Source: Leuctra nigra (lineage: Eukaryota; Arthropoda; Insecta; Plecoptera; Leuctridae). From it: a DNA stretch of 64,000 nt. The translations under genes and the position numbers were made by a program. Numbering within the stretch: position 1 is the stretch's first letter; the number at the start of each line of letters is the position of its first letter. A model generated the notes under the pieces. That model was not told the DNA's origin, made no database searches, and saw only the letters and a program-made list of their open reading frames with translations. The DNA lies in contig OW203763.1 of the NCBI GenBank assembly GCA_934045905.1, positions 35,911,017 to 35,975,016 on the forward strand. The letters run 5' to 3'. Positions 7,691 to 28,805 of the stretch are shown one piece after another.

Positions 7691-8315
7691 CACCGCGTAG
7701 AGAACAGCTATCTTCACACTATTAAATTTAAGGTGAGATCAGATGGGCTTGAGACGTGAAACAGGCTCCAATGCTAAATATGGCCAGGTCTATAGAGTGG
7801 ATTAGCTGCGGCTACCAGCCGTTCGCAGCGCTCTCTAAGCACCATGGTTGGTGTTAGAAAATCGAACTAATCTGAATTTTAGCGGGTTAATTCAAAATCA
7901 AATGTATAAATTAGAACTTAAACAACTTGGATAACGATCAGATGAAATCAAAAGGGTTGATATCAGTGTAAAAATGTGTTTAGTTTATTGATTGTAATAA
8001 TTAACATGTAATACAAGCATTTTCACTTACTTATTATTCACCAAACAGCAAATAACCTAAAAGACGGCATTTGACAGCTCGCGCCATTGACTATCACTCA
8101 AGAAATAAAATAACTGCTTACAATAGTTCCGTGATCGCCACCAGCGAACTTAGCGCTGCGATCGGCTAGGGTGCAGACTGACCAAGGGTCGATTTTATAG
8201 CATTTTTTTCTGCGTATTCCACCCGTAGTCCGTATTCACGGGAGCCAATGGTAGATCATTGAAGTGTTCACACCGTAAGCTTAATAGTGTGAAGATAGAT
8301 GTTCTCTACGCGGTG
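7691..8315. mobile_element. TIR element with 7 bp target duplication (copy A)
   Basis: The roughly 35 bp inverted ends begin CACCGCGTAGAGAACA and run on through CTTCACACTATTAA with two mismatches. They are flanked by CTCACAC on each side (7684-7690, 8316-8322). Copy C has the empty site with a single CTCACAC (about 49680). It is 625 bp with no transposase. A 7 bp duplication is unusual and is compatible with P- or Dada-like elements among others, so the superfamily is left open. Confidence 0.85.
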
Positions 8316-8806
8316 CTCACACATAAGCAGGAAAATGTTGTGGCCGAGCGAGGATCCCGGTGGAGTGAGAGCACTGGAGGTTCAACGTCCTCGTGGTGGT
8401 ATTTAGCTGCAAATCTACTTTATTGTGTGAACACTCCTTGGAGCACAGTAGGTATTCTGCTCTGCTGCCGAGTATACAAGCGCAGGGTTAATGAACCAGT
8501 GAGCTTCCTTATACTGTGGTGCAGTTCACAAAGATGTTACACCCAACCAGGAGTGATTCCAGCTTGGATGAAACACTGCATTGCCGGTGCTCTAAAAGTT
8601 GAAGACATTCTTGTGGGTCCAAACACGAAGAAAATATGTGCATTTACTTGTGGTATAGAGACGGACGAGTAGCAAATAGTATTCGTATTTGGGATATATT
8701 TTAATAGAATGAACAGTGAAGAGATGAAACACCCTTTCATCCAGCAGGCCCGGGTTTAATTCTGAATTATTTAATAGATTCCGTTGGCGTGAATTAATGT
8801 TAATTT

Positions 8807-9073
8807 ATGTGTGGCAACGCTCTGAACTTGTTTTCCGGAGGCCCGGGTTCGATTCCCGCGGCCGTCCTTCCTGACTGGGTTTTTTTTCGTGGCGTTCCCT
8901 CAGTCGACAGGCAAATGTTGGGAAGGTACCCTACTAATAGACAACGACCGCCTCCTTCCCACCTACCATCCTTACCTTCTCTTCACCATCATCTACCAAT
9001 CATCATCATAATCATTCATCCGTCGCAAATAGCCTCGCTGCAGAACAGTGCGACGTTAAACCCCAGACAAATG
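8807..9073 (+). mobile_element. tRNA-derived SINE (A box lost), copy A
   Basis: It contains a perfect Pol III B box, GGGTTCGATTCCC, then a unique body with CAT-rich repeats and a 3' end GTGCGACGTTAAACCCCAG. The better preserved copy at 50256-50521 has an A box (TTGGTTGAGTGCTC) at the right distance upstream. Here and in copy B that part is replaced by TGTGGCAACGCTCTG, so this head is probably dead as a promoter. Confidence 0.7.
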
Positions 9074-9434
9074 TTTTATTTACATTATATCATGGCTCGG
9101 GCTCTACATCGGTTTGATTAGCTGTCAAAAACAAATTAACGTAGACTCTGTTTCGTGGAAAAATGTGTTACACTGAGAGAAATTGTCATGAAAAGTATAT
9201 TGAAACATATGTTTTGCATGCCGCTGGCATCGTTCTGCTGTCTAGAAGTAGTGACCATCCTGCTGCTAGGTTGCATTGCATTAAGTATGCACGAATTTTT
9301 GACATTTTAGACATCTAGATGCCATTTACTAGACATGCAGAAGTGTTGAATTACTTGAAAAGTTGCATCTTCAATTTTCAACTCTGCAAGTTTATTAAAA
9401 TGTTGAAGTGATTCAAGAATGTCATGTCCATGGT

Positions 9435-9772
9435 GTAACAGTGCAGCACATTTGAATCTGAAATGTTGCATCCTGGTCTAGAATTACTGCACCCATAGAT
9501 TAAGAATGATGCACATTTGGATCTGGAATGTTGCATCCTAGTCTAGAATTACTGCACCCATAGATTAAGAATGATGCACATTTGGATCTGGAATGTTGCA
9601 TCCCAGTCTAGAATTACTGCACCCATAAATTAAGAATGATGCACATTTGGATCTGGAATGTTGCATCCTAGTCTAGAATTACTGCACCCATAGATTAAGA
9701 ATGATGCACATTTGGATCTGGAATGTTGCATCCTAGTCTAGAATTACTGCAAGATTAAGAATGATGCATCCC
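9435..9772. repeat. 65 bp tandem satellite (about 5 units), copy A
   Basis: The 65 bp unit runs from GCATCCTAGTCTAGAATTAC through GCACCCATAGATTAAGAATG to GGATCTGGAATGTT. Four nearly identical units are followed by a shortened one. The same array is in copy B (35449-35786). It is not in copy C, which diverges just before this point. Confidence 0.9.
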
Positions 9773-10278
9773 AGCTTAGGAGGGATGGTTTCTAGGAACT
9801 ACAAAGAAATTTACAATGTGTGTATTAGAAAATTACAAAAACTTTTTAATTAAGTATTCATGTCATTCAATACACAAAAGAAAACGCTTGCAATTATCAA
9901 AAAATGTAGCACATTGTCCACAAACGAACAATTATGTGGTTGCATCATTGTAAAGACATGTTGAACTTGTGTACTGACCATAATTAAAATAAGACATAAT
10001 GGGCAATTAGAAAACACATTAAGATGATACCTACGAATGTATATAAGGTATGTTCAGCAATTGTTTTCTGAGAGTAAGTAATTGATTAACAGAGGTATAC
10101 TTCTGATCATGTACTGTTTATACGTTGTAAATTAAATGCTGAATCCCAGGTCCATAACATTTTGCTCTTTGCTTGGTTCTAAGCTTAAAGTGTGTGAATG
10201 GCTTTGAAACATAGATCGACAGCCCTGGTCGCATCACTTTCCTTGTAGAGGACATTGTTTATGTTTATGCAGATATAT

Positions 10279-10734
10279 CAGTGTCGGACTGGGGCAAAAT
10301 TTCTTACCGGGCAACACAGTGCCGGACTGGCTCGTCAGGGGCCTCGGCGGCTATTGTTACTATTTAAAAGTTTTTGGGAGAAAGCAGCCCACCAGCCTGC
10401 CCCGCAGGGCGATTTTTGGATTATTATAACTTTAACATGGAATGTAAAAAAATTTGGTGATTTTAAAAGTTCATTATTTCACAAGAAAAACATTACAGAA
10501 AGGCCTGCTAATTTAGCCCCGCAGGGCGCTTTTTGATTTTCTGTTATTCTTAAATTGATTTTGGGATATGAAAACTTGAATTTTTTCATAATGAGGCCAA
10601 CAGAAAGTGAAGTTGAATGTACCCAAATTCAGCCCCGCAGGGATTATTTTAAATTTCAGACACTTTTAAAACAATTTTGCGATTATAAAAAAAGTGTATT
10701 AAATTTGAGCGAAGAAGCTAACAACGAATTGAAA
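10279..10734. mobile_element. Left halves of two nested hAT elements, truncated
   Basis: The outer left end CAGTGTCGGACTGGGGC starts at 10279 after AGATATAT. The inner left end CAGTGCCGGACTGGC starts at 10317 after GGGCAACA. Both match the complete nested pair in copy B (36292-38873 and 36330-37459). Three CCCCGCAGGG modules remain. Both right ends are missing because the palindrome at 10735 takes over. Confidence 0.85.
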
Positions 10735-11363
10735 GGGGGTCCCGGTTGTACTTTTTTATTTTGACATTCTCACAAGTTTTAATTCTGCCTTTAAGGCCGA
10801 TGCACAATTGGCGCAGACGGACAATACGGATGATGTTTAGGTATGACAAATTCACTCTGCTGTTCACAATTCGGACGCGGACGGACGACACAGACGTCAA
10901 ACACACCTAAACATTGTGTCCATAGGCCATCTGCGTCAATTGTGCATCGGCCTTAACCATAGAGTTTTTTTTTAAGTTGCCCAGCTTTAATTTTTGCAGG
11001 TTCGAATTTGTCTACTCATAGAGATTTTTACTTAGGCTGCCCAGTAGTAGCCCTGCCAGTAGTAGTTTAAAAATCTCTATGAGTAGACAAATTCGAACCT
11101 GCAAAAATTAAAGCTGGGCAACTTAAAAAAAAACTCTATGGTTAAGGCCGATGCACAATTGACGCAGATGGCCTATGGACACGATGTTTAGGTGTGTGTG
11201 ACGTCTGTGTCGTCCGTCCGCGTCCGAATTGTGAACAGCAGAGTGAATTTGTCATACCTAAACATCATCCGTATTGTCCGTCTGCGCCAATTGTGCATCG
11301 GCCTTAAAGGCAGAATTAAAACTTGTGAGAATGTCAAAATAAAAAAGTACAACCGGGACCCCC
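10735..11363. repeat. Near-perfect 629 bp palindrome
   Basis: The left arm from GGGGGTCCCGGTTGTAC (10735) matches the reverse complement of the right arm ending at 11363. About 300 bp per arm shows only about two mismatches in the part compared; the spacer is about 40 bp (around 11032-11070). Each arm contains one copy of a TTAA-flanked MITE. The high identity suggests a recent inverted duplication or ongoing arm-to-arm gene conversion. It sits exactly where copy A stops matching copy B. Confidence 0.93.
10794..10954. mobile_element. TTAA-flanked MITE, left arm (partner in right arm 11145-11305)
   Basis: The inverted ends GGCCGATGCACAATTG / CAATTGTGCATCGGCC are flanked by TTAA on both sides. 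This pattern fits piggyBac-like elements, although TTAA is itself a palindrome so other groups are possible. The second copy is the mirror image in the other palindrome arm and must have been copied with it. Confidence 0.65.
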
Positions 11364-14300
11364 TCGCACCATTGTCCAGGGCTCTACCTACTGCTAGCAG
11401 GATGGGTTGTTTACCGAATATAATTCCGTGACTGTACATTGTAGACTGAGCAAAACATGTAGCAATTGAAGCCGTGACAACCGTAATGCGGCATGCAGCG
11501 TTTCCTCCCACGGCCAAAAACTCCACGGTTTCAACTCCCGCTTACTGCAGGGTACGGCTTGAGCTTTCTACACTATACGTCTTCGGGATTCCACCTTCAA
11601 TCTTGGGCCTTCACTTCAGTGATGTTGGCTGGCCGGTCCTGACACCTCAATTACACTCTTCTTCTTTTTCTAATATACTGCCGTGTTACACGTCATAAGA
11701 AATGTAAATGCAATTTTTGCAGTTTTTCAGGTTACCTACATCACTTTATGGGTTAATATTTTCTCCTCTTTCCAAAGCAGTATGAAATTTGAGAAACAGT
11801 AAAGAAAAGCAATGTATCGGCCAGTATTAAGCTAAAAACAACGCAAGAACTAGATAATTTGTCAAGAAAAAGTGAGAAACAGTAAAGCCAACAACGTATC
11901 AATAGTAAGTAGACAAGGAAAATGCAAGGCACACAAAAATATATTACAGAATGTTGGTCAGTACACAATTTTAGCTTAAAAAAACATTTTTTTAAATTTA
12001 CGAAAAGTTCAAAAACAGCTCTCGGAATATTTTTTCTCAACAATCTGGTTGATACGTTGCTTATATCCGTAACATGGCAGTAGAGATAAAAATTCTAAAG
12101 AATTAGCTTTTGTAGAATATTCCTGAGAATGTCACAAAATGTGTGCCATTTATTTACCCATACTTTGAAATTATAATGGAGATCTGTTGACAATTATATT
12201 TATTCATGTTTCTTTTATGCATGCTGAGAGCACCATACTTTGAACTGGACTGTAGAAAGTCGAATATTTATTTATGTGAGTTAGAGTTATTTGACACTTT
12301 TGGCCTTGAACTCTTTTTTCTATTTTTTGTCGAAACAGATCACAGGTCATTGCTCAAATTGTGCTAAAATTTCATTTAAACTGTTGGTCTTTGAATTCCA
12401 CTGATTGGTTAAGTTATTAAAAATTATAAAAAAAATAAATAAATTAGGTACTTTTGATTGGTTGAAAATTCCAAATGTGTGGAAAAGGTAAGCTGAAACT
12501 TTGAAGGTCACCAACACATCAAAGTGCACTCACAAATCTCACTTGTCAACACAATTACAAAAAGCCTATTACATTATTACCTCTAGCGATTGAATGATAA
12601 AAGAATATTATACATTGAATTGAACACTTAACAGGCCAAAATTTTCATAACTTTGCTTACTTTTCAATCATTGACAATGAGTTTTAATTCTGTGGGTGGT
12701 TACTTGTGCCAACTTTTGATACCTACTCAATACATTTCGAGCCTGTTATAATTTTATTGTAATACCTATTAATAATAATCTTTATCCCAGTTCCAAGAAC
12801 TGGTGATTTTTAATATAAAATTATGCATTGTGGAATAAAATAAAGGGATCATCGAGGAAACTGGGGAAGATAGTAATATAACAGACCAAAGTTAAATTGA
12901 TGGAAGTATGTTTATTTAAAATGCATAGATATTGCATAGGTTAAGGACCTAATGAGATTTTTATATATTAAATTTATAACAATGCAATTTGTAATATATT
13001 ATTTTTAAAGCTAGGTATCGAAAAAAAAAATAGAAGAATCATGAATTGAAAGATGAGATATGGCTTATATGATATTATGGTGAAACCAGGGGAATGTACC
13101 TGAAAACCTGAAACCAAAACCGTATTACTTTTTTGTCTTAACCTGAATCATTATGGTTTGGGTCTTTGTGAACCCAAACCTGAATCCAAACTAATACTTT
13201 TTCGAGATTTTTATTGGTTTGCTTCAACCTCCACTAAAAATATTGACAAAACATGACTTGTGTCCCAAATTCGTTTTTATGCGAGTTAAAATAAAAAATC
13301 TTCCTGCGGGGCAAACAGGATGTCCGACAACCCAATTTTGCACCTTCCCCCCCAACCCATTTCACAGAATAGTTAACCTTTCCCTTAGTCCCTTGGATGG
13401 GACCTTTAAGTAAGTTACATAATTTTATTGGAAACATAATTTTTTTTAAATAAAATAATACGTATTTCTAAAAAAAAAAGCCCAGAACCCTACCAAAAGA
13501 CTTGATTTTTCTGATGAAAATTTGTGTATCTGTTTCCTAAAACCTGGGTTCAAAATGAAAATTTATTGGTTTTAAACTTGAACATGTATAAACGTACACT
13601 GATTATTCTTAGCGTGGCCGTGAACCTGTACCCATATTTTTTTTTGCCTTAACCCCAACTCATAAACCCGAAACCTTGTGTTGATAGAAAATGTAGTTTT
13701 AGTAATTTTAAATATTTTTTAAATTTTTATTTAGGCGAGATTATTGATGAAGATTTTTTTGTCTCATTTTCATAATAAAAAACAAAGAATGAATGTTATG
13801 AATGTACGTAGCAAGTTTGCTAGGTAGCAATTGAATCAAAATGAAATATGTGGATTTTTTTTGTATTAACTGCTATGTAAATAAGACTTGATCACTGGCA
13901 AGGTGACACTAATATCTCAGTCATTCAAGATAATGGATTGTTTGATTGCTCATGAAATAGAAATTCAACAGACTGATATTTAACATGAATATAAAAGTTG
14001 TGAAATAAAAGAAGTTCAATGATTCTAAAAGCTATGTGCTTTAACAGCGATAATATTGGAAGAACATCCTAGTATTCACTCTTCTAGTATGTCCCATGAT
14101 AATGTGGCAGTAGAAAGATATTGTTTAAATCAAATTACATTCAAAGTCTTGATCCAATACTGTTTAGGTTCAATTCCTTGTTCTACTTGGATAAGTAGGA
14201 CAGTTTTAAGTATTGTAGGAGTTACTGGACATCTGGTAATAAACAAAATAAACATTGTACTCGAAGATTCCATTGCCATGTTATCATGGAATAGACTATC

Positions 14301-15106
14301 GCTTTGGAAAAAACGCCAAAAAACCGCAGCAGGATGTGTGAGGCATTCTCTTCCAATGCACATTGCTTTGCAAATGAATTTGAGATTTAATATGACTTAG
14401 ATTTGAATAATGACAAAATATTTGTATCTACCCGAGATCAAAAGAACAAATGCAGCTACTGCACTGGCCTACTGGCCTTTGTGAATTCATATAATTAATG
14501 AGCAGATGTCATTATTAATTCTTATATAATAAACTAGTATATAATAAACTATATCCTGTTAATTAATTATATTTAATAAAATTCAATTGTGAATTTAAAT
14601 CAGTCTTAGGTCTTTTAAAGTAAATTAAATTAAATTTTTTATTTGATTTGATGATGATGAATGATGATGAAATGATGATGAAAAATCAAAGAACTAATAA
14701 GCATGTGCAAACAACTGCTTTAACAAGGTTTAGAAGTAGAAGAAGTTTTTAGTAATAAGAACAAAATCATAATTAAAACCCAGTAAGAGCTGAAAACAAG
14801 GAGATTTACGTATACAATGCTATGAGGTATCCTTGTATGACTTGGACACAAGAAAGGAACATAGTGAAGAAGTTAAATTGGAAGATGTATAAATTTAATT
14901 GGGAAGTAACTAGTAAAGAAAGAGGTCAGACAAATGGAAGTGAGACACTATATGATACAATTTGAATACTGATAAGTATGATGGTTAAGCTGAAAGATAT
15001 TTCGCAAGGGCAAAAAAGGAAGCCTCTAAGTAGTGGGAAGGAACCAGTGAGAGCAGTAAACTTAATAATGCATGCATACTATAGTCAAAAATTTACCAAC
15101 AGCAGT
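11364..15106. other. AT-rich non-coding stretch
   Basis: No convincing gene was seen. Points of note: a short exon-like minus-strand reading at about 11364-11526 (FLAVGGNAACRITVVTASIA), of unknown nature, that runs into the palindrome; a degenerate AACCTGAAACC-rich zone at 13085-13680; within it one GCCCCGCAGG-type module on the minus strand (CTGCGGGGCAAACAGG at about 13310); a weak inverted pair CCATGATAATGTGGCA / TGCCATGTTATCATGG (14092-14295); and a GATGAT microsatellite near 14645. Confidence 0.6.
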
Positions 15107-15112
15107 CTACCA

Positions 15113-15493
15113 AATTCGCGTTTTCGGGGTGACCAGATGGCAGCACTTTCCAGGCCGCTATAACCGCCATGACACTGCGCAGTAACGCGCATTGGTTTGT
15201 TTACGTTGTTTGCTGTCATGGCGTCATGGCGGTATCGAAATGTCAGTGAAGGTGGAATAACTTGTGAGTTGTGTTGTTTACGTTATTACTTTGTTATTAT
15301 TTCATTTTATCATTTCCACCAGATTCCTTACCATAATTGTGGTTTATTTCCGAAGATAATAAATACTGCATTTCTGATCAAAATGACATTGATAACATCA
15401 ATAACATTGGCGGCCGAAACGAAAACGACTCGAGTCTATAGCAGTTATACTTTCTCACACTAGAGTGTGCACCCTTTGCTCGAAAACGCGAAT
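15113..15493. mobile_element. Possible small TIR element
   Basis: ATTCGCGTTTTCG at the left meets its complement CGAAAACGCGAAT at the right, about 380 bp apart. Within it is a second inverted pair (ACCGCCATGACA / TGTCATGG..ATGGCGGT, 15166-15236). No certain target duplication is seen. It lies just downstream of the large transposase ORF but does not pair with anything upstream of that gene. Confidence 0.45.
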
Positions 15494-15826
15494 ATAAGCT
15501 ACATTACTCCTCATGCATCACTAAAACTTAACAATACTTGCATTACCAGAAAAATATTGCACTTATTGATATAAAATTACAGTATATATTAAATTGTTTA
15601 AGGAGGGCATTCAAAGTCTACAGCACTATTGTAAGAGAGAGAGACACATCGCTGATGGTGTAATTGATGGCACCTGATACATTTAACAACAGCACTATCA
15701 TGGACGCTACAGCACGCTATATGCCCCGACACAAGTCTTCGTGACTTATTGGGGTATATATATCAAACAAATATGTAAACACTGTGTGAACACACTCTCT
15801 GTACCATTTTGAAAAATAAAAATAAA

Positions 15827-18800
15827 TCAAATCAAATGTGGATCAGCTGCCAGAACTGGGCCCGAACAAGTAACACATTTTGTTTTTGAGTATCTGTGAT
15901 TTTGTAAACAATTTTTTGCCAATGTCTGGTATATTTTTTTCCTATAATGACTTGTATTAATATTATCAGTAAGGGGTTTATCATTCAATATACAAGACAT
16001 ATAGTAGCAAAGAAATACCACACAGCTCATTGCATCAGACTGTAGCGCATGTGGAGGGCAGAGGATTTGCCAAGACTCAGAATTACCTAAACGTTGATTA
16101 AAAAACACCTTCAGTAAACGAATATACTCTAAGGTATAACTATTTCCAACTGTATGACTACTACTTAACGAGTCATAAACTTCCAGAACACGACTGCTGG
16201 GTTTGCAAACAATTAGAATCCAGTGTATATTGGAAACATTTGTAGGAATTAAAACTACTCTCGCAGCAGAAATATCAATTCCACTCAATATGTTTGTGCC
16301 ATCACAACCATGTTCCAGTGCCCATTGATTAAATGCTGTAAAGTACCTAATGTTGTCCAAAGGATTGTGATGATTACAAATTTCATACGTGTAACCGAAA
16401 ATGATCATATTAGAAAGCCAACCTGTTTTAAAATCTGCATCGTTCCTTTGGAGGGCTGCCATGTCGTTAGCATTTACCTCTGGTTCCAAGGACTTGAGGT
16501 CAGAAAAAGCTATATGCACGTGGCCTTGGGTTACTGCATGGTAAGCAGTAAAATGTAATAAAATCTCAAGTAGAGCAACATAATTTAACTCTGGTGTGAA
16601 TGGCTTAATCCGGCTACTATATGTGTGAACAGCGGTGGAATTAAATCTCTTATATGACGGCATTACAGGGGGAGGTCCTAATTTTGAAACTACAGTGGAT
16701 TGCTTAGCCCGAGGAACAGTTACTGTACTTTTGGGGGCAATTGACATATTATTGGCTTTTACAATGTTCGTAATATCATCCAACACAGATGTTTGTTTAA
16801 TATTCGAGTCCCCTGAATGCGTGGAATTTATTGCTAACAGTGACGCCCTCATACCTTTTTTGTCGTCAAATGAAGGGTTTTGTAAAGCAGATGTAGATGG
16901 TTTTCTAATTGCTGTAGTACGGCGAAATTTATGCTTTGACTGCAGTTCGAATTTTTTACTTGTAAAAACTTTTAACGTGGGACTCATTGGTTTAAGGTAT
17001 CTCAATTTGGTAGCAGCAATACCTCTGCACTGAGAAACAAGAGAACTTAATGTTTTCTCTACATTGTGCATTAAAAGTTTGCTAATGGATTCATCATTAA
17101 TGAAGCCTCTTAGTTCCTCAATGTGTTCGATACATTTTGCACGAGATCTTGGCAAATCATCAATGAGAGATTCAGTATAATTATTAATTGGATTTGTAAT
17201 GATAGGAAACGATGAATTAGAGTCCACATGATCACTACAGACAACGTTCAAGGATGCGGGGACTGGTACTTTATTTAGTTTTCTGTTTCTAAATGAATGT
17301 ATTTTATGGATATGCTTGCAGATGCCACTCAAATCAGGACATGAGCAATGGTACATGTGACCACAAAGAACTATACAAGTGTTTTCTAAACATATTTCAA
17401 AGCAAAAATCAAAATTACAACTATCTCTTTCAACTGTTACAAAATAAATAACTTCACAATTAGTCTTGTTTTGAGACAAAACTTTCCAGGAAAAACCGCT
17501 AACATCTACCTGAGAAATATTGTCATCAGGAATGTGCACCCCGCGGATGTGACGTTTACCAAAAGACGCAGGGACATCAGACTTAGCTTCATTGGTTAGA
17601 ATTCTTTTTTTATTTTCTAAGTATCTATCCCTCTCCATTTCAAATAATACTTTTAATAAAACATCTACCCTAGCATTTTGCTTTCGTTGGAAGAATTGAG
17701 TTTTTAATTTATTGTGAAATGACTCACAGTACATGTTAGTATGCGTATTTGAATGAGGGAAATTTCTATGACAGTATGCCCAAACTTCTGGTCTATTTGA
17801 ATAATATGTGACAAAATAATCTACAAAACCAGGACACAAATGCTTGAATTTATTTATAAAATTATTCAAAAGAGTATCAAACTGATAAACATTCCGCTCT
17901 TTCAAAATAACTTCTAAGGCAGTGAAGACGTCCCTCTGTAAGCTTTGATCATGAATGTGAAGACCAATGTTTTTTTGCCAAGCGCGTTTAACATGCCACA
18001 CACAGAGAAAGTGGTGCCTTGCTTTTTCACCAAAGGCATTCTTAACAGATTGCCATCCTCTTTGGTCATCATCTGTCATAAGGACATTGATATCGATACC
18101 ATCGGGGCATCGTGAAGCAATGTTTGAAAAGCATGAAGTTAATGTTGCGGTTTTGTCGTCATTGGTAATGAAGTGAGCAACCGGGTAACCGTAACCGAAT
18201 TCATCAGGAACAACAAATGTATACAAGTAATAGCCATATTGAGTAGTGCTATAGGTTGAATCCAAACATAAAATCTTCACTGAACCCTGCTTCATCATTT
18301 CTAACTGTTCTTTAGTTTGAATACCTACAACAAATAAATCTTTACTATACGGCAAATTATCTAAATCCGTATTACCTACAACGGTGTCTCCTCCCATTGG
18401 TTTATATACAATGATGGAGTCGTCTTTCTGTTCTAATTTACCTTGAATAAAAACTGCAACCGATGTAGCATCATCGGCTAAACGTCCCTTTGCTTTCAAT
18501 GCACTGTCAAACTGATTCAAGTACCTCATGGATACTTGATGAATTTTTTTTGGAAATAGCGTACCATCTCTCTTGTCCAGAAGACCAGCATCTTCCTGCA
18601 TATCTAGTTTGATTTTACGTTTTGACACACCATCATTTAATTTGCCCTCAATAAAGGATCGAGTATCCTCTTGATATTGACGATATTTTACATTTTCAAA
18701 TTTTAAATCATGGGTATGGGACTTTATATATTCTACATTAAGAACACCATTATTTATTGCCACTAGCATTCGAGCTGGGCAGTCAAAATCAGGAACTTGA

Positions 18801-20875
18801 CCTTTTGTCCATTTCTGTGAAGTGAGCCTGTAGTGATCATTTTTCATCCTATGAGTTTTATTTTCAACATCGAATTGACATGTATAGTAAGTGTGTGCTG
18901 TATCGCCACGATTTGAACTACTTGAATTTGTAAAACTAGAGAATTTTTTGATTTCCTCCTCTGCCTTCCACTTTTTAAATAAGGCCATGTTAGGAAATGT
19001 AAGGTGCTCACTTTCAAATATGTATCCATGAACACTTGCCAAATGGTTAATCATCGCGACTTTGTGATAGAATGTATTATTGCAAACATCGACTAGACAT
19101 TTAGTTCGAGCCGGTCCATGTCTGTCCTTCTCTCCACAGGTTGTTAAATGTCTGGAATAAGCATGCCTATTTGCATATAATTTGTTGCAAGCACTACATT
19201 CTCGAGGATAAACTATTTTCCCTCCCGCACAAACTCTTGTACTAAAAGCTAAATCTTGAAGAGAATTATTGCTATCATCAACACGGTGCTTGACAACTAA
19301 TGTGGGCAATGTGACAGAACAGCCTGGAGGAGACTGGTTGCCAGGGGAACAAGACAGAGCAACCTTTACACTGGCACCTTCCTTGGGGATCGGTGAGTGT
19401 CTCGGGAGCTGTGAATGGCGAGGGAAAGAAACAAACCGAGAAACTTGCGGCTTCCTCTTGCGAGGTACAAGGACAGTAGAGTGCATGCAAGAAGAAAAGC
19501 CATCACAATAGCTGTCACCAAGAACACTAAACTTATTAACACTCTCAAACATCATTTGTGGTCGGGCTCCATTCAAGACATGCACCGAGGGAACTTTCAT
19601 GTGGGGGACATGCACCGAGTGGACATTCATGTGGGGGACATGCACCGAGGGTACTTTCATGCGGGGGACATGCACCGAGGGGACATTCATGTGGGGGACA
19701 TGCACCGAGGGGACATTCACGGAGGTAACTTTCATGCGGGGGACATGCACCGAGGGGACATTCATGTGGGGGACATGCACCGAGGGGACATTCACGGAGG
19801 TAACTTTCATGCGGGGGACATGCACCGAGGGGACATTCATGTGGGGGACATGCACCGAGGGAACTTTCATGCGGGGGACATGCACCGAGGGGACATTCAT
19901 GTGGGGGACATTCACCGAGGGAACTTTCATGCGGGGGATATGCACCGAGGGAACTTTCATGCGGGGGACATGCACCGAGGGGACATTCATGTGGGGGACA
20001 TGCACCGAGGGAACATTCATGCGGGGGACATGCACCGAGGGGACATTCATGTGGGGGACATGCACCGAGGGAACATTCATGCGGGGGACATGCACCGGAG
20101 GAGGCAGAAGAAAAGTAAAGCCTGGAGGAGGCAGAATACAAGGGAAGCCTGGAGGAGGGACAGAAACATCAAGAGGGGGGACAGATACATCAAGAGGAGG
20201 GACAGATACATCAAGAGGGGAGACAGTAACATCAAGAGAGGGGACAGAAACATCAAGAGAGGGGACAACAAAATGAGGGGACCTCAGGACAGGAAAGTCT
20301 ACATTCAGTGAAAAGCTTGGCATAGAAGGTAGGACAGAAGAACATGAAGTAACAAACTTGTCATACACAGACCTAATATACTCAAACCCTGTGGTAGAGA
20401 GGTGCAGGCCATCGCCTCCGATGTGGTCTCGAGCGAGGAATGTGTGCCACTGGTCGCACAGCTCGACTTCCCACGCGCTGCACCTCCGACGCAGCTCGGT
20501 GTTCAGCTGCTTCGCCTTGTTGTTAAAGTCCTCCGCTTCCCTGATGCGGTCTGCCCGTGCCTTCCGGTGGTCAAACTCATTCACGTGGCGCGGCAAAACT
20601 GTGCAAATCACAATCCGTATCAGGGGATTTGCCTGCCTCGTTTCGCAAATGAGGGACTCAAATTCCCTAAGGATGCAGTGGATGGATTGGAATTCGTTAG
20701 ACACATTGTTTGTGCCGACATGGAAGATGACGGCACGGTAGTAGGGGACGATGCGCACGGCGTGCTCCTTAATGTGACAGATGTGCCCGCCAGGGAATGA
20801 CTGCACTGCGAGAGTGTCGCCATTCCAGTCGGACACATATTTCACCTGCGAGTCACCGATTACAATCAGGGACAT
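15827..20875 (-). CDS. MULE-type transposase fused to SGNH hydrolase and Ulp1-like protease
   Basis: A single uninterrupted 1,682-residue ORF. In order: SGNH/GDSL hydrolase (about 1-180; GDSQ with S9, GTNN 54-57, D155..H158); a low-complexity linker of 7- and 10-residue repeats (about 205-435); a C2HC/C2H2 finger pair (C560 to about 615); a FLYWCH/WRKY-GCM1-like finger (C666, C699, H720-x-H722); a MULE DDE core (D872 in CLDST, D935-937 in MTDDD, C958-x2-H961, E1051 in YCESFHNK); a SWIM finger (C1177-x-C1179-x6-C1186-x-H1188); and a Ulp1/C48-type protease with H1551, D1568, Q1612 and C1618. The start is the only ATG ahead of the SGNH motif. MULE-Ulp1 fusions are known in plants; the SGNH domain in front is unusual. 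No terminal inverted repeat could be matched across the gene, so transposon versus domesticated gene is unresolved. All catalytic residues are intact. Confidence 0.9.
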   Translation of the reverse strand: MSLIVIGDSQVKYVSDWNGDTLAVQSFPGGHICHIKEHAVRIVPYYRAVIFHVGTNNVSNEFQSIHCILREFESLICETRQANPLIRIVICTVLPRHVNEFDHRKARADRIREAEDFNNKAKQLNTELRRRCSAWEVELCDQWHTFLARDHIGGDGLHLSTTGFEYIRSVYDKFVTSCSSVLPSMPSFSLNVDFPVLRSPHFVVPSLDVSVPSLDVTVSPLDVSVPPLDVSVPPLDVSVPPPGFPCILPPPGFTFLLPPPVHVPRMNVPSVHVPHMNVPSVHVPRMNVPSVHVPHMNVPSVHVPRMKVPSVHIPRMKVPSVNVPHMNVPSVHVPRMKVPSVHVPHMNVPSVHVPRMKVTSVNVPSVHVPHMNVPSVHVPRMKVTSVNVPSVHVPHMNVPSVHVPRMKVPSVHVPHMNVHSVHVPHMKVPSVHVLNGARPQMMFESVNKFSVLGDSYCDGFSSCMHSTVLVPRKRKPQVSRFVSFPRHSQLPRHSPIPKEGASVKVALSCSPGNQSPPGCSVTLPTLVVKHRVDDSNNSLQDLAFSTRVCAGGKIVYPRECSACNKLYANRHAYSRHLTTCGEKDRHGPARTKCLVDVCNNTFYHKVAMINHLASVHGYIFESEHLTFPNMALFKKWKAEEEIKKFSSFTNSSSSNRGDTAHTYYTCQFDVENKTHRMKNDHYRLTSQKWTKGQVPDFDCPARMLVAINNGVLNVEYIKSHTHDLKFENVKYRQYQEDTRSFIEGKLNDGVSKRKIKLDMQEDAGLLDKRDGTLFPKKIHQVSMRYLNQFDSALKAKGRLADDATSVAVFIQGKLEQKDDSIIVYKPMGGDTVVGNTDLDNLPYSKDLFVVGIQTKEQLEMMKQGSVKILCLDSTYSTTQYGYYLYTFVVPDEFGYGYPVAHFITNDDKTATLTSCFSNIASRCPDGIDINVLMTDDDQRGWQSVKNAFGEKARHHFLCVWHVKRAWQKNIGLHIHDQSLQRDVFTALEVILKERNVYQFDTLLNNFINKFKHLCPGFVDYFVTYYSNRPEVWAYCHRNFPHSNTHTNMYCESFHNKLKTQFFQRKQNARVDVLLKVLFEMERDRYLENKKRILTNEAKSDVPASFGKRHIRGVHIPDDNISQVDVSGFSWKVLSQNKTNCEVIYFVTVERDSCNFDFCFEICLENTCIVLCGHMYHCSCPDLSGICKHIHKIHSFRNRKLNKVPVPASLNVVCSDHVDSNSSFPIITNPINNYTESLIDDLPRSRAKCIEHIEELRGFINDESISKLLMHNVEKTLSSLVSQCRGIAATKLRYLKPMSPTLKVFTSKKFELQSKHKFRRTTAIRKPSTSALQNPSFDDKKGMRASLLAINSTHSGDSNIKQTSVLDDITNIVKANNMSIAPKSTVTVPRAKQSTVVSKLGPPPVMPSYKRFNSTAVHTYSSRIKPFTPELNYVALLEILLHFTAYHAVTQGHVHIAFSDLKSLEPEVNANDMAALQRNDADFKTGWLSNMIIFGYTYEICNHHNPLDNIRYFTAFNQWALEHGCDGTNILSGIDISAARVVLIPTNVSNIHWILIVCKPSSRVLEVYDSLSSSHTVGNSYTLEYIRLLKVFFNQRLGNSESWQILCPPHALQSDAMSCVVFLCYYMSCILNDKPLTDNINTSHYRKKIYQTLAKNCLQNHRYSKTKCVTCSGPVLAADPHLI
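19578..20097. repeat. 30 bp coding minisatellite within the transposase ORF
   Basis: About 16 units of 30 bp (GGGGGACATGCACCGAGGGG plus ACATTCATGT on the plus strand) encode a ten-residue motif such as VPSVHVPHMN on the minus strand. Two extra 15 bp half-units occur near 19718 and 19787. Every step is a multiple of 3, so the host frame is kept and three other frames also stay open. This explains the long false ORFs here. It is a hydrophobic/His-rich flexible linker, probably length-variable between individuals. Confidence 0.92.
20157..20275. repeat. 21 bp coding repeat (VSVPPLD units)
   Basis: About five 21 bp units (GGGACAGATACATCAAGAGG and variants) encode a seven-residue proline-rich motif between the SGNH domain and the 30 bp minisatellite. 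Confidence 0.8.
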
Positions 20876-21056
20876 GACAGAAAATAGGAGAAAATATTAG
20901 AAATTGAAAACTAAACTGGCCTGATCACTCTGATGTCTCCCAAACACTCCTAGCAGTACAGCTCAGGTAGGCAGGAGAAGCTGTTAAAATTAATGCACAT
21001 CAAAAGACTGGAACATTGTGAGAATGTGTGGTATAATAAGGAATAGTAGTCTGTTC
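20876..21056. promoter_or_regulatory. Upstream region of the large ORF
   Basis: About 180 bp separate the start codon at 20875 from a MITE at 21057. No TATA box or clear terminal inverted repeat of the transposase gene was found. If a promoter exists it lies here or within the MITE. Confidence 0.25.
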
Positions 21057-21212
21057 GTCGGGGTGTTCTAACCTGCTCAGATCACACCAGAAGTCATCAC
21101 GAAACAGTTTACTTATACTTATCCGTCGAGTTTTGATTCATAATCCTTGCACCTAACATATTCAGTGACGTACTTCCACTTGCTCGGAGCAGGTTAGAAC
21201 ACCCCGACAAAC
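21057..21212. mobile_element. Small MITE with 22 bp inverted ends
   Basis: GTCGGGGTGTTCTAACCTGC at the left is mirrored by GCAGGTTAGAACACCCCGAC at the right; the pair continues a few bases less perfectly (TGTTCGTC / GACAAACA). No ORF and no certain target duplication. Confidence 0.8.
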
Positions 21213-21399
21213 AATCCTGCACGACATAGAAAAATGTCTATTTCCCAGCCTCAATCCTCCGTAGATTGGTTTATCTACCTAGAGAGTAAAGGTTCAGAGT
21301 CAGCCGTCTTGCCATGGAAATATCAAGGAATTTCGTGGCCCCCTGGTGCCCCCCCCAGCGAAATGTTTGAACATCAATTAAGCTGTACCATTTTTAGCT

Positions 21400-22345
21400 A
21401 GGTACCACTAGGAAAACGCTCTGTGTAACGCGTTGATGAGCGAGCACGGACAGGCGCAACACCTCGAACCGAAATTATGTCTATCGAAAATATCATTAAA
21501 AGCCAATAATTCTTTAATTTGTCAGACTCAAGTATAAAAATCTCAAAATTGTCCTAAAACATTAGTCCCAATAACCATGTAAAGCTTGAACCTTTTGAAC
21601 CTTTCTGATTGAACTGTTCCTCGTTAATATTCAAAAATCACAGGATCTCTTAAAAAAAATAGACCTGGGACCACTCATATGATAAAAGTGTGTGTACTTA
21701 CACAATATTAGATCGATCTGTTGAATGGTCATATCAGTTTCATACATTTGAAAGTTTCTACTCTAACTAGGTACCTTGGAACTATAAAGAGTCGAAGTAG
21801 CCGTGATCAACATTTTCGAGATATTTGACAGCCAACACGCAAAATGTCCGTAAAACGTCAATAACTTTTGGATTTAAACATAGATTAGTCTGAAAATTGT
21901 CAAAAATGCAGATAATGTTAGTCCCAATGACCATGCAAAGTTTTAAGTTGATCAGTCATACGGTTCAAGTTTAAATTTAAAAAATTACATAAAAGATTTT
22001 TTTAAATTTTAACCAATGGGAGGATTTGGCTGAAACTTTGTAAGATTGGGTACAATGTTGGTCGCCATGACTTGTCAAAATTTCAAATTGATCGGAACTA
22101 CCAATCAAAAGATATTTTTTTTTAAATTTGAACCAATCACATGAGCCCGTTCAAAAACGATCCCAGGGACCGCATAGATTACGTTAGTATATGTGCAAAA
22201 TTTCAGATCGATTGGTTGTGCCGTTTGACCTGGGCAGTGAACACAAAAAAAACAACAAAAAAACAAAAAAAAACAAAAAAAACAAACACACAGAGAAAGT
22301 GCCGTAAGAGTACCGTGGTGACGCTCGCTACGCTCGCTCAATAAA
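21400..22345 (-). repeat. Diverged inverted copy of the GAGCGAGCG repeat family
   Basis: On the minus strand this reads like the segment at 24060-24625. It has the GAGCGAGCG-rich start, the GATYGATCTGAAATTTTGCACA module, a CATGGTNAT..ACCAANAT module, and CGAGCACGGACAGGCGCAAC matching the GTGCTCGCTCATCAACGC block of the duplication. The short module is repeated three or four times in this copy. The same modules occur inside the hAT at 1822-3473. No function is assigned. Confidence 0.65.
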
Positions 22346-23597
22346 TATGGCAGAAATTAGTGAATTTAATGTTACTTTTAGCGGCCTCAAGTTTTTCAAG
22401 TTAGTAATTCGAGTTTTGTAATCACACCAACAATTGCCTCATCTAGTGCAGCATGTGCACAACATTTTCATATATTATACTAAGATTAAAGACATACTTA
22501 CAACAGAATGTGTAAGGATATACTCAGATTGGCCATACTATCCAGTCATACTATTCTACTCTGGAGGCCAATTCTTGAGTTTTCACGTTTTGGAACCATA
22601 CGTTTTCTTGTACTATACAACTTGAAACAATTGACAACTATTGCTTAGCCTTCAACTTTTATACTTTTTAAACAAAGACAACATACCTACCTACCTACCT
22701 ACCTACATGGTTTCAAAACGTTAATCTCAAGAATTGGCCCCCTGTTATTTGGTAAATTGACAGTAGGTACCTGTACCTACCTACCTACCTACCTACCTTA
22801 TTATATTCTACTTACTAGTTACACTCAAATCATAAAACAGTATTTGAAAGAAATGGATTGTCTGAAAAAGATGTGAAGCATCATCCGATGAAGTCTATGC
22901 TTACTCGTCATCTAGGTACCTCTAGTGGGTACTAGGTAGGTGAACTCTGATTTCATTGATAATAACAAGGATTGATTGTCAAGGAATCTGGCCAGCAGCC
23001 AATCTGTTTCATTCAAATACGTTTTATGATTTGTTGGGTGTAGGTAAGTACCCACCTACCTACGTAGGTAACTATCCAGTAGGTATACTGAGATACGGTG
23101 TACCTACCTACCTAGGTACCTAGGTATGTTTTTGAAGGTTTCAATATTTTGTTATTATCCCCACACCACAATATGAAAATATATTGATACAGATTAAACT
23201 TACTGTAAGGTCTTTCCGCTCATTTTATGCGATTTGACACTACCTAGCAAGGTGGTACAGGTTATGTATCCTAGTGTTTCTCGAACATTTTATCAATTTG
23301 AAGTTATATTTGCTACTAGGTATTATTAACATTGCGTACCTTGTTACGGAGACACGATATACGACACGTAGACACACAATATAAACGCAGATGAACCTGT
23401 AGTAGCTCAATACTTACCCATGGGTTATTTGAAAAAGGTTAGAACGCGGCAAGACGACGAAAAATCGACCATGGCGCCACCCCACGGACACACGGACATT
23501 TTTGTTACTACAAAATGTTACCCATCTCGGCCCAACGAAGCTACCAAGCGGCCAACCGCTATCCGCCATCTGGCGGAGATCGAGTGGACCTTGATAG
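22346..23597. other. Non-coding, CCTA-rich, with an interspersed repeat
   Basis: No gene was seen. Arrays of CCTA/TAGG occur at about 22685-22707, 22775-22800 and 23040-23130. The part 22840-23050 is a diverged match to 4958-5170 (GAAAGAAA..GGATT, CATTGATAATAACAAGGATT, CCAGCAGCCAAT). The same repeat core reappears near 3610-3690, 48400-48530 and 54325-54430. Confidence 0.55.
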
Positions 23598-24260: not shown

Positions 24261-25462
24261 CCGAATGGTCGAAAATCAAAATGTTTTTATCAAGTTAAAA
24301 TTTAGCATGGTGATCAAGACCAACATTATCTCATATTCTACACATTTTCAAACCAATCGGTCAAGTACTTATTTACAGACTTGTTGCCGTTTTTGGAGTA
24401 TACAAGTGTTGTCAAAGAGATTTTTGGAAAAAGTAGGTAAGTCACGCCGCATGGATCTGTTATTCAGTTTGTCCAGAACCAGAGTGTGTGGAAATGGAAA
24501 GTTGTAAAGATAATCGGATCATATCGTATCGATCGAGAATCGTGTTTGGCTGGAGGTGTTGCACGTATCTGTGCTCGCTCATCAACGCATTACACTGAGC
24601 GTTTTCCTAGTTATTATCTTTTTGTATAAGCCTATTATTGAACAGGCTCATGCATCCAGACTTATAAATTTCAAGTGCCCAGAGTCAATTGGATTCCTTC
24701 CATAGATTATTAGCACACTGTCTTGTGGTGTTGCGGACTGACATCCGCAAATATCTTTTTGAGGCAGCTTCTTTTGAGCAGGAGACATGTAAATGGGGAG
24801 AGGCATTGATGCATTTGAAACAGGCAGTGAATTCCAAGAAAACACAGCCCATCATAGAGGTGTCTGTCACAGTCTTATTGTTCCGCGCCATTGTCACTCT
24901 ATACATTCATAGTTATGCTTATGGTTTGTGTATCTCAACCCCAATGCAATTTGGTTGATCAACTTGGTACCAAGTTTATTGATCAAGTTGAAGTTGATCA
25001 AGCATCAAGTTGCTAGTGTGGATTGGGCTTTAGATGTAGTTACGTCAAGAGGTTTCTGCGACTTGATATTGTATTTATGAATGAAGTATAATAAGAAACT
25101 TTGATCATGATGGTTATTTCTTGATGATGAGAGGATTTATAGTCACCTGGCTTTTATCACAAAATATTATATCGGTGGCTGTATACATACTTGCACATGC
25201 TGGAAGGTGTTATCGTGGTCAAGTTTCTCTCCCCTCTAAGATCATTATAATCTGGTACCAATATCATAGGTCTTCACATTGTATCGTTAAATAAAAGAGA
25301 AAACCATCCACTTAACACAAGTAATATTGCATTCCATAATACATTCGGTGTTTCAAGCTTATTAGATGCATGTAATTGTAAATGTTTCGGTATCAAAAGA
25401 GATAATTAGTTACAAAGTAATGAGACCTTCAATATCAACAAAAAACATCAAATTAAAAAATG

Positions 25463-25541
25463 TGGCAGCGGTGGGATTCGAACCCACGCCCTTTCGGACT
25501 GGTGCCTAAAATCAGCGCCCTAACCGCTCGGCCACGCTACC
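25463..25541 (-). tRNA. tRNA-Leu (UAG), copy B, possibly weakened
   Basis: Same 79 nt fold and TTTAGGC anticodon loop as copies A and C, with a perfect T stem. There are two changes: an A-C mismatch in the anticodon stem (CTGAT opposite ACCAG) and TTAGGGC in place of TTAAGGC in the D arm. The Pol III T-run follows. It may be a drifting copy with reduced function. Confidence 0.85.
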
Positions 25542-26361
25542 TTGCTTACATTGCGACGTTTGAATACAATACGTCTCATCTGTCCAATTGGCGCCAAATA
25601 TGAACATTCTTTCTAGGTTTAGTTAGTTTCATGGGTAATGTAGTACATACATACTGCCATTGTGATACCTACTTTTAGTTTCATTCCTTATTATTTTGTA
25701 TAACACAGAAGCATGTCAATTGGTTATTTATAAATCATAGATAAATAAGATCTCACTCAAAAGGATTTTGATACATGAGTTTCACGAAATGAGTGTACAT
25801 TTTTTTTGTTATCAAGAATTTCAAAACCCCACATCTCTCAAAAAAAGGGAGATGAAAACAATGTTTGGAATAATTGTTTTGGTCCTTCGCCCTTGTAGTT
25901 TTTACTGGCTCGTGCTTTAACTGATTGGAGAGAATAAGTACAGTTTTATTTCATAACACGTAATGCCCAGTATAGGAACATGACCATCAACACACATAAC
26001 TAACACGGTTTCCAGTCAACCAAGTCCTCGGTATTTCTTTCCAAATATTAATGTATGATACACTCCACAAAACATTAAAGGGTATATGAAGTAATCAGTG
26101 TCTGAAAATGATTGATAATAGTAATCTAGCTCTAGTAGGCGAGCACTCATTTCATTGATAATAAGAAGGATCAATTGTAAAGGAACATCACTACCAGTCA
26201 TTCAATTGTATTCATATGTTTTTCCGAGTGTACCTACATAAATACAACATGAGGTAATAATGTTATTGTCAACTAATAAGTTGATCCAAAGGTAATTGTA
26301 GAAGGTAACATATTAATATTTGTTATTATGTGATGTCCGTTTTCCCAGGTATTACCACGTT

Positions 26362-26658
26362 CAGTGGCGGCTATTTGGCTTTACAACAGGTGTTCAATTA
26401 CATAGAAGGACGTAGAAAAAAGTACTCTAAGAGGAGAGCCCCCAGCAGATGCGGGGCCGGGGCGCATAACCCCTTTTATTTTATTTTTTTTATTTTTAGA
26501 TTGAAATTGATGCATTTTTACGTCTTTTGGAGAGCAAAATGATTAGACAAAATATTTTACTTCCTATACTTCCTGGATTAGGGAGCACTTTTAAATAATT
26601 TTCTTGGATGATCAGGTGTGCAATTGTCACACCTTGCACACTGTAATAGCCGCCACTG
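26362..26658. mobile_element. 297 bp hAT MITE, insertion only in copy B
   Basis: The ends CAGTGGCGGCTAT / ATAGCCGCCACTG are flanked by an exact 8 bp ACCACGTT (26354-26361, 26659-26666). The empty site with one ACCACGTT is in copy A near 3826-3833. No coding sequence. A clean case of insertion after the A/B duplication. Confidence 0.95.
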
Positions 26659-28805
26659 ACCACGTTCTTGCAGTATCCAAGTATTTATTCAGTTATAATT
26701 GCACACTGACTTGAACACGTTGCCAGCAAGCAATACTCTTGCTGCAGCATTGACACGGAATGGGGACAGATCTCAATTATCTTTGAAATGAGTTGGTTTG
26801 AAGCACAGCCTTCTCGACAGTCACTTCGTTCTCTGGGGGCGTGTTTTTCTATTGGATCCGAGCACCTCCGAGCGATCGGAAACCACGAAAATCGTTTTTC
26901 TATTGGATCCGAGCGCTCGCGCAACCGTTTTTATATTGCAGAGCAGAGCATTCAGAGGAGATCTGTCAGCTCCGGATGAAAAGGCGAGGCAACGAGATCA
27001 CTGCTGATCACTGCCTTCTACAGAACAGAGATTCCATCAGTTTCTGAATAGTGAGCTGTGATATTTAACCTGAATTGATAAAATGTCAGGTGACAGTAAG
27101 TTTTTAGGCATTATTATTTTTAAATTACTGCTTACTATTTAGTTCATTGCATTTTCTGAGTTATATTATATTTCAAAAACTTTCATTTAATTGTAAATGA
27201 TTTAATACTACCCTACCTAGCATTTTTCTAATACAATTTACATACGTTATTGCCTATACCTACAAATTTACCTACAAATTTAGGTAAAATTTAGGCAAAT
27301 TTAGGTTAGGTATGGTCCAGCTTCCTATAAGCGTCCTTTGTAGGTACTACCTACCTAGGCTTACCTACCATTGACATGTTCTGCACTTATGATTCTTGCA
27401 ATGACATTGACATACACCTATAATTAATTACATACTAGCCAAACAAGGGGTCATTCCTGTACCTACGTTTTTAGTCTTTTGGCTATCGTTCGTACATTAT
27501 AAATTTTGTTAACATTAGAATGCTAACTTAACGTCCATAACAATCCATAACAATAAGAGAGTGAAAGTGTGTATAGGTACAGGAATTACCTCCCAAGTCA
27601 CTATCCATTGGTACAATCATTCAGCATACCTAAAGAATAGCACAAATGGTGAGGTTCTGAAGTGGGTGTGTGGGATTGTGTGCTCTTACCATACCATGGT
27701 CTCAAACACACTCACACATGGTCACAAAACTCGTCTGCCACTGGGACAAAATTTGAATTTTTTTAAAAGTTACACAATACCTATAGGTACACTTGAACCA
27801 ATAAAAACGGTTTTCGAAAGAAACAGATTAGCTGAAAAAGATTTGATAGTATCATCCGGTAAAGTCTATACTAGCACCTCACCTACCTCTAGTATATGAG
27901 CTCTGATTTCACTGAAAATAACAAGATTAGATTCTCAAAGAACCTGACCAGCAGCCAATACGTTTTGCTCAAATACCGTTTTTAGTTGTGCCAAGTGTAC
28001 CATCTTTAAATAAAAGCAGCGGCATCGCAATCAGCATTTCGTTCTAAATATATTCTAGATGAGTTTTCTGGAGTTTGTTGATATCCAGCATTCAGCATTG
28101 GTATTTTACTTGATTGGATTGCTTAATATATTCATACTAATGACATATCTTTATATTTAATTACAGCACCAAAGAATCTGAAAGCAATAGTGATTGCTCT
28201 GGGTCGAACGACATCGCGGGACCGTCACATCTCCAGGCTCTGCGCAACGCGAATGCTTTGGCCTATCAGTTATTAAAGAGAATCCATAACGTGATATTGT
28301 ATCTACTTCTGTTACCATGTCTAAAATAATAAAATAGAAGAACATTTTGTTTAAAACTTTCTTTATTTCCCATTAATATTAAATCATTTTTGAATGCGAA
28401 GATTTGCTTTAAAAATCAATGTATATTTACGATATTGGATATTTGGATAAGATATTTACCACTTGATATAATATTTATCAGTAGAGTTGTCTAGAGTTCC
28501 ATGATATTAAATAAAATATATGTACAAAGCTATACTTGGATGGGATCTGAAACATTCTCTTGAAAATGAGGGACCACAGACTTTGGCTATTCTAACCTCG
28601 AAAGTTGTATGTATGTATGTATGTTTTATTGATCCGCTTTGTGATACAATGCACGGTGGCAGAACATATAATAATGTGATAATATTATCTCACATAATAA
28701 CATGATAACAATAATTATAATACATGCGTCTCGACATTAAAAATCTAGTGTAGAATGAGAATGAATGAGAATGAGATGAGTGATATGTGATGAGTACAAA
28801 CAATA

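What the first reader, a model, noticed from the sequence alone, without database searches (positions are those of the whole stretch)
15827..20875. Five-part transposase: SGNH hydrolase + zinc fingers + MULE DDE + SWIM + Ulp1 protease in one intact ORF
Seen: one open frame of 1,682 codons with each catalytic set complete (S9/D155/H158; D872/D935-937/E1051; H1551/D1568/Q1612/C1618) and three zinc-binding motifs. Known: some plant MULEs carry a Ulp1-like protease, and esterase domains occur in ORF1 of some CR1/L2 retroelements. An SGNH domain at the front of a MULE transposase with Ulp1 at the back is, as far as I know, not a described architecture. Inference: the protease could remove SUMO-like marks from host silencing factors, and the hydrolase could act on lipid or an acylated protein.
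Basis: partly seen in the sequence, partly recalled or inferred. Interest (0 to 1): 0.88.

Follow-up and report, generated by a model that had tools for sequence, protein, structure and literature searches.

The report
Jumping gene with esterase and protease
This is a large Mutator-type jumping gene whose single long protein carries, besides its DNA-cutting enzyme, an esterase-like part at the front and a SUMO-protease-like part at the back, a combination that two separate families in the same genome share.

Summary
One minus-strand ORF (20875 to 15827, 1,682 codons) encodes SGNH hydrolase, repeat-rich linker, zinc fingers, MULE DDE domain, SWIM motif and Ulp1/C48 protease; every residue listed is where stated. 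It is not an accidental join: six places in this genome carry the SGNH module at 97% or more, and a second family, 49% identical in SGNH and 51% in the DDE core, has the same domain order. Comparison of copies shows a real MULE of about 13.1 kb with imperfect 30-bp terminal repeats and 9-bp target duplications in 3 of 3 other copies compared. The window copy spans 10734-23545, keeps one end and has lost the other to an inverted duplication. Ulp1 in animal MULEs is already published (PMC2836005), and SGNH esterases are known from retroelements (PMC3905857) and beside Helitrons (PMC4021074). SGNH fused to a DDE transposase turned up in none of my searches. What SGNH and Ulp1 do is inferred; this family's Ulp1 nucleophile context (SCVVF) is atypical. 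New variant of a known kind.

The parts
10734..23545 (-). The MULE (family 1), window copy; its left end is rearranged and lacks about 575 bp including the terminal repeat
   Evidence: Homology to copies on contigs C7, C4 and C1 stops at 23545 in all of them with different flanks; other copies run on past the window's left breakpoint to a common end
15827..20875 (-). Transposase ORF, 1,682 aa plus stop
20351..20875 (-). SGNH hydrolase domain, residues 1-175 (S9, G29, N56, D155, H158)
   Evidence: Pfam 36.8 bits alone; 4c1b esterase 5e-8; model and fold match
19466..20320 (-). Pro/Val-rich linker, residues 186-470, mostly in-frame tandem repeats (30-bp array 19577-20097)
19028..19204 (-). Two C2H2/C2HC-type zinc fingers, residues 558-616
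   Evidence: zf-met 22.3 bits for the first; positions
18710..18880 (-). C..C..HxH motif (C666, C699, H720, H722), WRKY/FLYWCH-like by eye
   Evidence: positions; name recalled, no family hit
17696..18343 (-). MULE DDE (RNase H-like) core, residues 845-1060: D872, D935-937, E1051, with CxxH 958-961
17312..17347 (-). SWIM motif CxCx6CxH, residues 1177-1188
   Evidence: motif only; identical ligands in family 2
15881..16558 (-). Ulp1/C48 protease domain, residues 1440-1665 (H1551, D1568, Q1612, C1618)
   Evidence: Pfam 34.5 bits alone; SENP1 2.6e-8
23516..23545 (-). Intact terminal repeat at the 5' side of the ORF (GGTAGCTTCGTTGGGCCGAGATGGGTAACA read inwards)
   Evidence: Same sequence at the same end of C7, C4 and C1 copies; core found once in the window
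10734..11364 (.). 297-bp arms, 99% complementary, 37 bp apart: inverted duplication that replaces the other end of the element

Best explanation
A composite Mutator-superfamily (MULE) DNA transposon. Shown: one ORF codes for SGNH - repeat linker - zinc fingers - DDE - SWIM - Ulp1; the element has imperfect 30-bp terminal repeats, makes 9-bp target duplications, lies at several places of the genome, and a second family has the same protein order. Inferred from the families: the DDE core cuts at the terminal repeats and joins the element to a target with a 9-bp stagger, and the zinc fingers and SWIM part hold the ends. Inferred, likely: the Ulp1 domain trims SUMO or a similar tag from host factors or from the transposase itself, so that it escapes silencing or degradation. 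Inferred, uncertain: the SGNH domain, closest among solved structures to the esterase of a LINE ORF1 protein, is an active esterase that binds or splits lipid or removes an acyl group, placing the complex at a membrane such as the nuclear envelope. The repeat linker lets front and back parts work at a distance. The window copy cannot move from its own two ends (one is lost) but could still supply transposase.
For: Domains and residues. Terminal repeats 21 of 30 positions alike, 19 of 20 in the core; 9-bp direct repeats at C7 (GTGTTTTAG), C4 (TTCAACGAT), C1 (CTCAAATAA), 3 of 3 compared. Six places with the SGNH module at 97-100%, four of them also listed with the Ulp1-side match at 97-100% where covered by the main row. 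Recent movement: C13 and C7 copies both keep an open frame (1,682 and 1,675 aa) and differ by about 12 changes in 1,397 codons outside the linker. Family 2: SGNH 44.2 bits, MULE 54.7, C48 39.6 in one copy scanned; 10 of 10 family-2 SGNH rows have a transposase/Ulp1 row on the same strand within about 7 kb. SGNH (83 of 170 identical) is as conserved between families as the DDE core (186 of 366), more than Ulp1 (73 of 218). Family 2 copies C8b and C8a: 6 synonymous, 4 non-synonymous changes in 1,336 codons, dN/dS 0.18. SGNH profile: LINE ZfL2-1 esterase 4c1b 1.1e-16, next 2hsj 3.5e-10.
Against: No transcript or protein data. No relative of residues 545-1682 in the 5.8-billion-protein set at 1e-3, of the Ulp1 part, in viral contigs or GTDB genomes; these sets may hold few eukaryotes. 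Family 1's Ulp1 has SCVVF where SENP1 and SENP5 have DCG[MV]F and its two best copies differ there by 4.5 non-synonymous and 0.5 synonymous changes (tiny counts), so the protease may be decaying in this family; family 2 has NCGVF. Family 1 dN/dS between C13 and C7 is 0.65, not informative. One of two residues said to mark transposon esterases is not kept (C91 for S228). SGNH and linker DNA is far richer in G+C (GC3 0.67 against about 0.3), which alone would suggest a late join; family 2 shows it only weakly (GC3 0.43).
Confidence: 0.85

Rival explanations
1. A domesticated host gene: a former MULE transposase kept by the host, with SGNH and Ulp1 added, no longer mobile.
For: The window copy lacks one terminal repeat yet its ORF is intact; MULE-derived host genes are common (recalled).
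Against: Other copies have both ends, 9-bp target duplications and unrelated flanks; near-identical multi-copy families, some copies broken by stops and insertions.
Confidence: 0.05
2. SGNH is passive cargo: a captured gene fragment fused in frame that does nothing for the element, like the gene pieces in plant Pack-MULEs.
For: MULEs often capture genes; SGNH and linker differ in base composition from the rest.
Against: SGNH is 83 of 170 identical between the two families with all catalytic residues kept, as conserved as the DDE core; both families keep it at the very N-terminus, and so does the metagenomic relative P0002, though what follows in P0002 is unknown.
Confidence: 0.15
3. SGNH and Ulp1 act on the element's own protein: Ulp1-type protease and linker serve to release domains, so the ORF is a polyprotein cut into an esterase and a transposase.
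For: Very long, low-complexity linker (285 aa here, over 1,000 aa in family 2) between SGNH and transposase.
Against: No cleavage site recognised; C48 enzymes normally cut after a Gly-Gly of ubiquitin-like proteins (recalled) and none is present as a domain here; nothing tested.
Confidence: 0.12

Closest known systems
Animal and plant MULEs with a Ulp1 domain (hydra, lancelet, Arabidopsis, melon, rice; PMC2836005, passages; Kaonashi/VANDAL, PMC13317346, passages)
   Same: MULE transposon with a C48 domain; in animals reported in Mutator transposases
   Different: No SGNH domain is mentioned in the passages seen; plant Ulp1 is described there as one of several genes of non-TIR MULEs, not as the end of this single protein
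Esterase-type ORF1 proteins of CR1/L2, RTEX and Penelope-like elements, ZfL2-1 (PMC3905857, passages)
   Same: SGNH fold with S/G/N/D/H set; H191 kept as H52; nearest solved structure to the window's SGNH
   Different: Those are retroelements with a coiled coil in front of the esterase; here SGNH starts at residue 1 of a DDE transposase; S228 is C91 in family 1 (S in family 2, T in P0002)
texim SGNH genes near fish Helitrons (PMC4021074, passages) and GDSL esterases of rotifer Terminons (PMC6431247, passages)
   Same: SGNH/GDSL enzyme travelling with a mobile element
   Different: Separate genes beside a rolling-circle or reverse-transcribing element, not fused to a transposase
Ginger1 transposons (PMC2836005, passages)
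   Same: C-terminal Ulp1 and PHD after a DDE transposase; family 2 here also ends in a weak PHD match (20.3 bits, cut-off 24)
   Different: Ginger uses a Gypsy-integrase-like DDE; this one matches MULE models
Phantom, Ghost and Spectre MULE clades of arthropods (PMC6446971, passages and section 5)
   Same: 8-10 bp target duplications, SWIM or C2H2 fingers; minisatellite after the ORF in aphid Phantom, and family 2 has a tandem array downstream of its ORF
   Different: No SGNH or Ulp1 listed for them in the table seen; clade membership not tested here

Membership tests
MULE (Mutator superfamily) | MULE-type DDE RNase H-like domain | tested here: met
   PF10551 42.4 and PF21056 57.3 bits on residues 660-1130; D872, D935, E1051
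MULE (Mutator superfamily) | Target duplication of 8-11 bp | tested here: met
   9 bp in 3 of 3 other copies compared; not findable for the window copy, whose left end is lost
MULE (Mutator superfamily) | Terminal inverted repeats | tested here: met
   Imperfect, 21 of 30, outermost bases differ; the window copy has one end only
MULE (Mutator superfamily) | SWIM zinc motif C-terminal to DDE | tested here: met
   CxCx6CxH at 1177-1188 by motif; no Pfam match
Phantom / Ghost / Spectre clades | Placement in a transposase tree with those sequences | not tested
   No reference sequences fetched
SGNH hydrolase | Ser, Gly, Asn and Asp-x-x-His blocks | tested here: met
   S9, G29, N56, D155, H158; same in family 2 and P0002
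SGNH hydrolase | SGNH fold | tested here: met
Transposon-type esterase of LINEs | H191 (ZfL2-1 numbering) | tested here: met
   H52
Transposon-type esterase of LINEs | S228 (ZfL2-1 numbering) | tested here: not met
   C91 here; S in family 2, T in P0002
Transposon-type esterase of LINEs | Coiled coil in front of the esterase | tested here: not met
   SGNH begins at residue 1
Ulp1/C48 protease | C48 profile with His, Asp, Gln, Cys | tested here: met
   34.5 bits, cut-off 20.7; H1551, D1568, Q1612, C1618
Ulp1/C48 protease | DCG context of the nucleophile as in SENP1/SENP5 | tested here: not met
   SCVVF in family 1; NCGVF in family 2
Ulp1/C48 protease | deSUMOylating activity | not testable with these tools
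   needs an assay
Ginger1 | Gypsy-integrase-like DDE with GPY/F motif | not tested
   Pfam gave MULE models; no integrase family passed its cut-off (rve_3 12.5 bits, cut-off 26.5)

The most novel reading that the evidence does not exclude
A DNA transposon has independently gained what LINE ORF1 proteins have: a membrane-acting esterase, fused to its transposase and kept by selection in at least two families, working with a deSUMOylase in the same protein. The esterase would bring the transposase or the excised element to a membrane (nuclear envelope or vesicle), helping germ-line access or passage between cells, while Ulp1 lifts SUMO-based silencing. That would make membrane handling a general need of mobile DNA, not of retroelements alone.
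Probability: 0.15. Interest if true: 0.85.

Novelty: new variant of a known kind. Interest (0 to 1): 0.62.

Why it matters
SGNH esterases have been seen in several unrelated retroelements and beside Helitrons, and their purpose is an open question. Finding one fused to a cut-and-paste transposase, as well conserved as the DDE core between two families, says that the need it serves is not tied to an RNA intermediate. Because several copies with open frames exist in one genome, the role of esterase and protease in transposition can be tested directly with catalytic mutants.

Tried and rejected
Assembly join or separate genes: rejected. Recent capture of SGNH, suggested by its high G+C: weakened, because family 2 has a related SGNH at the same place with only slightly raised GC3.

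Finding ends inside the window alone failed: TSD-plus-TIR search gave two chance-like pairs and a TIR search gave only A+T-rich matches. Two small inverted repeats beside the ORF (21052-21213; 15115/15492) were considered as element ends and rejected after the copies were compared. I first read 10734 as the edge of a segmental duplication and then as the element's end; comparison of copies showed a rearranged end.

Homologue searches without result: proteins; viral contigs; GTDB. One hit, P0002. The Ulp1 model failed and was not used for a fold search. Global alignment misaligned SGNH between families (24 of 131); I replaced it with a module alignment (83 of 170). dN/dS counts are too small to lean on. 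Family 2's right end was not found. Counts of terminal repeats genome-wide did not complete.

Full report
What was claimed and what is there. The finding is confirmed. On the minus strand an ATG-started frame runs from 20875 to 15827, 1,682 codons. Pfam supports MULE/ZSWIM RNase H-like, C48 and, when the part is scanned alone, GDSL/SGNH and one zf-met finger above their cut-offs; in the whole protein GDSL is just below its cut-off (30.2 against 32.9). SWIM and the third zinc motif are motif readings. The SGNH model (pLDDT 64.6) matches SGNH hydrolases; the Ulp1 model failed, so that domain rests on sequence.

It is a transposon, and larger than the ORF. The window lies in a 536-Mb genome (G000, contig C13). 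With residues 1126-1682 as query, 21 rows came back: four places at 97-100% in their main rows (C13, C7, C4, C1) and a divergent group at 33-37%. I compared flanks of the C7, C4 and C1 copies with the window. All four share one end, window 23545, with different DNA outside it. The three other copies share a second end about 575 bp beyond the window's left breakpoint. In those three, 9-bp direct repeats flank the element: GTGTTTTAG, TTCAACGAT, CTCAAATAA (read from the printed ends). The ends are imperfect inverted repeats, 21 of 30 alike with a core of 19 of 20. Length is 13,120 bp in C7 and about 13,005 in C4; C1 is stretched to 22.8 kb by inserted DNA. These are MULE features (PMC6446971, table seen in passages: target duplications of 8-11 bp).

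The window copy. Its right end is complete. Its left end is replaced by an inverted copy of internal sequence (arms 10734-11030 and 11068-11364) and the terminal-repeat core occurs only once in the window. So the ORF is intact but the copy has one usable end. The C7 copy has both ends and an open frame of 1,675 aa, and differs from the window ORF by about 12 changes in 1,397 codons outside the linker (3.5 synonymous, 8.5 not). The C4 copy has three stops and frame changes; C1 is split by insertions. Movement is therefore recent.

A second family with the same architecture. The divergent group (family 2) reads SGNH, a linker of over 1,000 residues of repeats, zinc fingers, MULE, SWIM motif, C48 and a weak PHD (20.3 bits, cut-off 24). 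I read four copies: 2,421, 2,436, 2,421 and 2,313 aa from ATG, and domain-scanned one, without most of its linker. A search with the window's SGNH gave 21 rows: seven rows at six places of family 1, ten of family 2 at 49% in open frames of 1,871-2,480 codons, one partial 75% match on C3 and three weak ones. All ten family-2 rows have a row on the same strand within about 7 kb; of the six family-1 places, four do, and two (C7:24.19 Mb, C1:54.97 Mb) do not, though both carry family-1 flanking sequence. Only best candidates are scored, so counts are lower bounds. The 5' end of family 2 resembles that of family 1 (19 of 30 positions; random 30-mer pairs reached 17 or more in 0.07% and 20 or more in 0.001%). 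Its right end was not found.

Conservation. Module by module between families: DDE core 186 of 366 identical, SGNH 83 of 170, zinc region 84 of 196, SWIM region 46 of 127, Ulp1 73 of 218, the stretch between SWIM and Ulp1 43 of 165. SGNH is thus kept as well as the DDE core. Synonymous sites are saturated, so this points to selection on SGNH, though no formal test across species was possible. Against a uniform picture: SGNH and linker DNA of family 1 is rich in G+C (GC3 0.67 against about 0.3). Because family 2 has the same fusion with GC3 0.43, the join predates the split and composition is not evidence of a late capture.

Where the SGNH comes from. A three-sequence profile (families 1 and 2 and P0002, a 245-aa metagenome protein 41% identical to the window's SGNH) finds the ZfL2-1 LINE esterase (4c1b) at 1.1e-16, the next at 3.5e-10. 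Schneider and colleagues name two residues seen only in transposon esterases, H191 and S228, and an esterase preceded by a coiled coil (PMC3905857, passages). H191 is kept; S228 is C91 in family 1, S in family 2, T in P0002; there is no coiled coil in front. So it works like, and is probably related to, that group, but I do not file it as a member.

How it probably works. Shown: domains, ends, target duplications, copies. Inferred from the MULE family: cut-and-paste by the DDE core, with zinc fingers and SWIM part in end binding. Inferred, less sure: Ulp1 removes SUMO-like tags from host factors or the transposase. For family 1 there is a warning: SCVVF instead of DCG[MV]F at the nucleophile, while family 2 has NCGVF. 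Least sure: SGNH as a lipid- or acyl-directed esterase; [quoted passage not shown]

What is known. Ulp1 in Mutator transposons of hydra and lancelet as well as plants is in print (PMC2836005). SGNH/GDSL is known in CR1/L2, RTEX and Penelope-like elements, Terminons (PMC6431247) and beside fish Helitrons (PMC4021074). Ten searches of an open-licence library listed no paper that I recognised as describing SGNH fused to a DDE transposase; I read passages of nine papers and one full section of one of them, not every paper listed, and Repbase, Dfam and subscription papers were out of reach.

Verdict. Real, not ordinary, but inside a known kind: a MULE with a new N-terminal esterase module and a known C-terminal one, present as two families in one genome.

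Noticed in passing
window 1-10734 and 24283-36748, 43272-46325: Large segmental duplication at 97-99.7% identity around the element, with a partial third copy; the element's broken left end lies exactly at a duplication edge, as if break repair had made both.
   Followed up: partly
window 28808-31971: Non-LTR retroelement (endonuclease and reverse transcriptase) inserted in one duplicate only; the empty site is seen at 5967/5969.
   Followed up: partly
window 15116-15490 and about 15691-15836: Two short insertions present in the window copy and absent from the C7, C4 and C1 copies; the second abuts or overlaps the last codons of the ORF.
   Followed up: no
window 21401-22340: Stretch present in the window and largely in C7, absent from C4 and from L030: a further insertion or deletion inside the element.
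   Followed up: no
window 19415-20311 (+): Long open frames on the opposite strand are a by-product of tandem repeats whose unit is a multiple of three.
   Followed up: yes
L019 10531-12099: Family 2 has a tandem array (unit about 82 bp) downstream of the ORF, recalling the minisatellite reported after aphid Phantom transposases.
   Followed up: no
window 1269-1348, 25462-25541, 45247-45326: Three tRNA-Leu copies (minus strand) carried by the segmental duplication, and one tRNA-Ala at 47395-47466.
   Followed up: no
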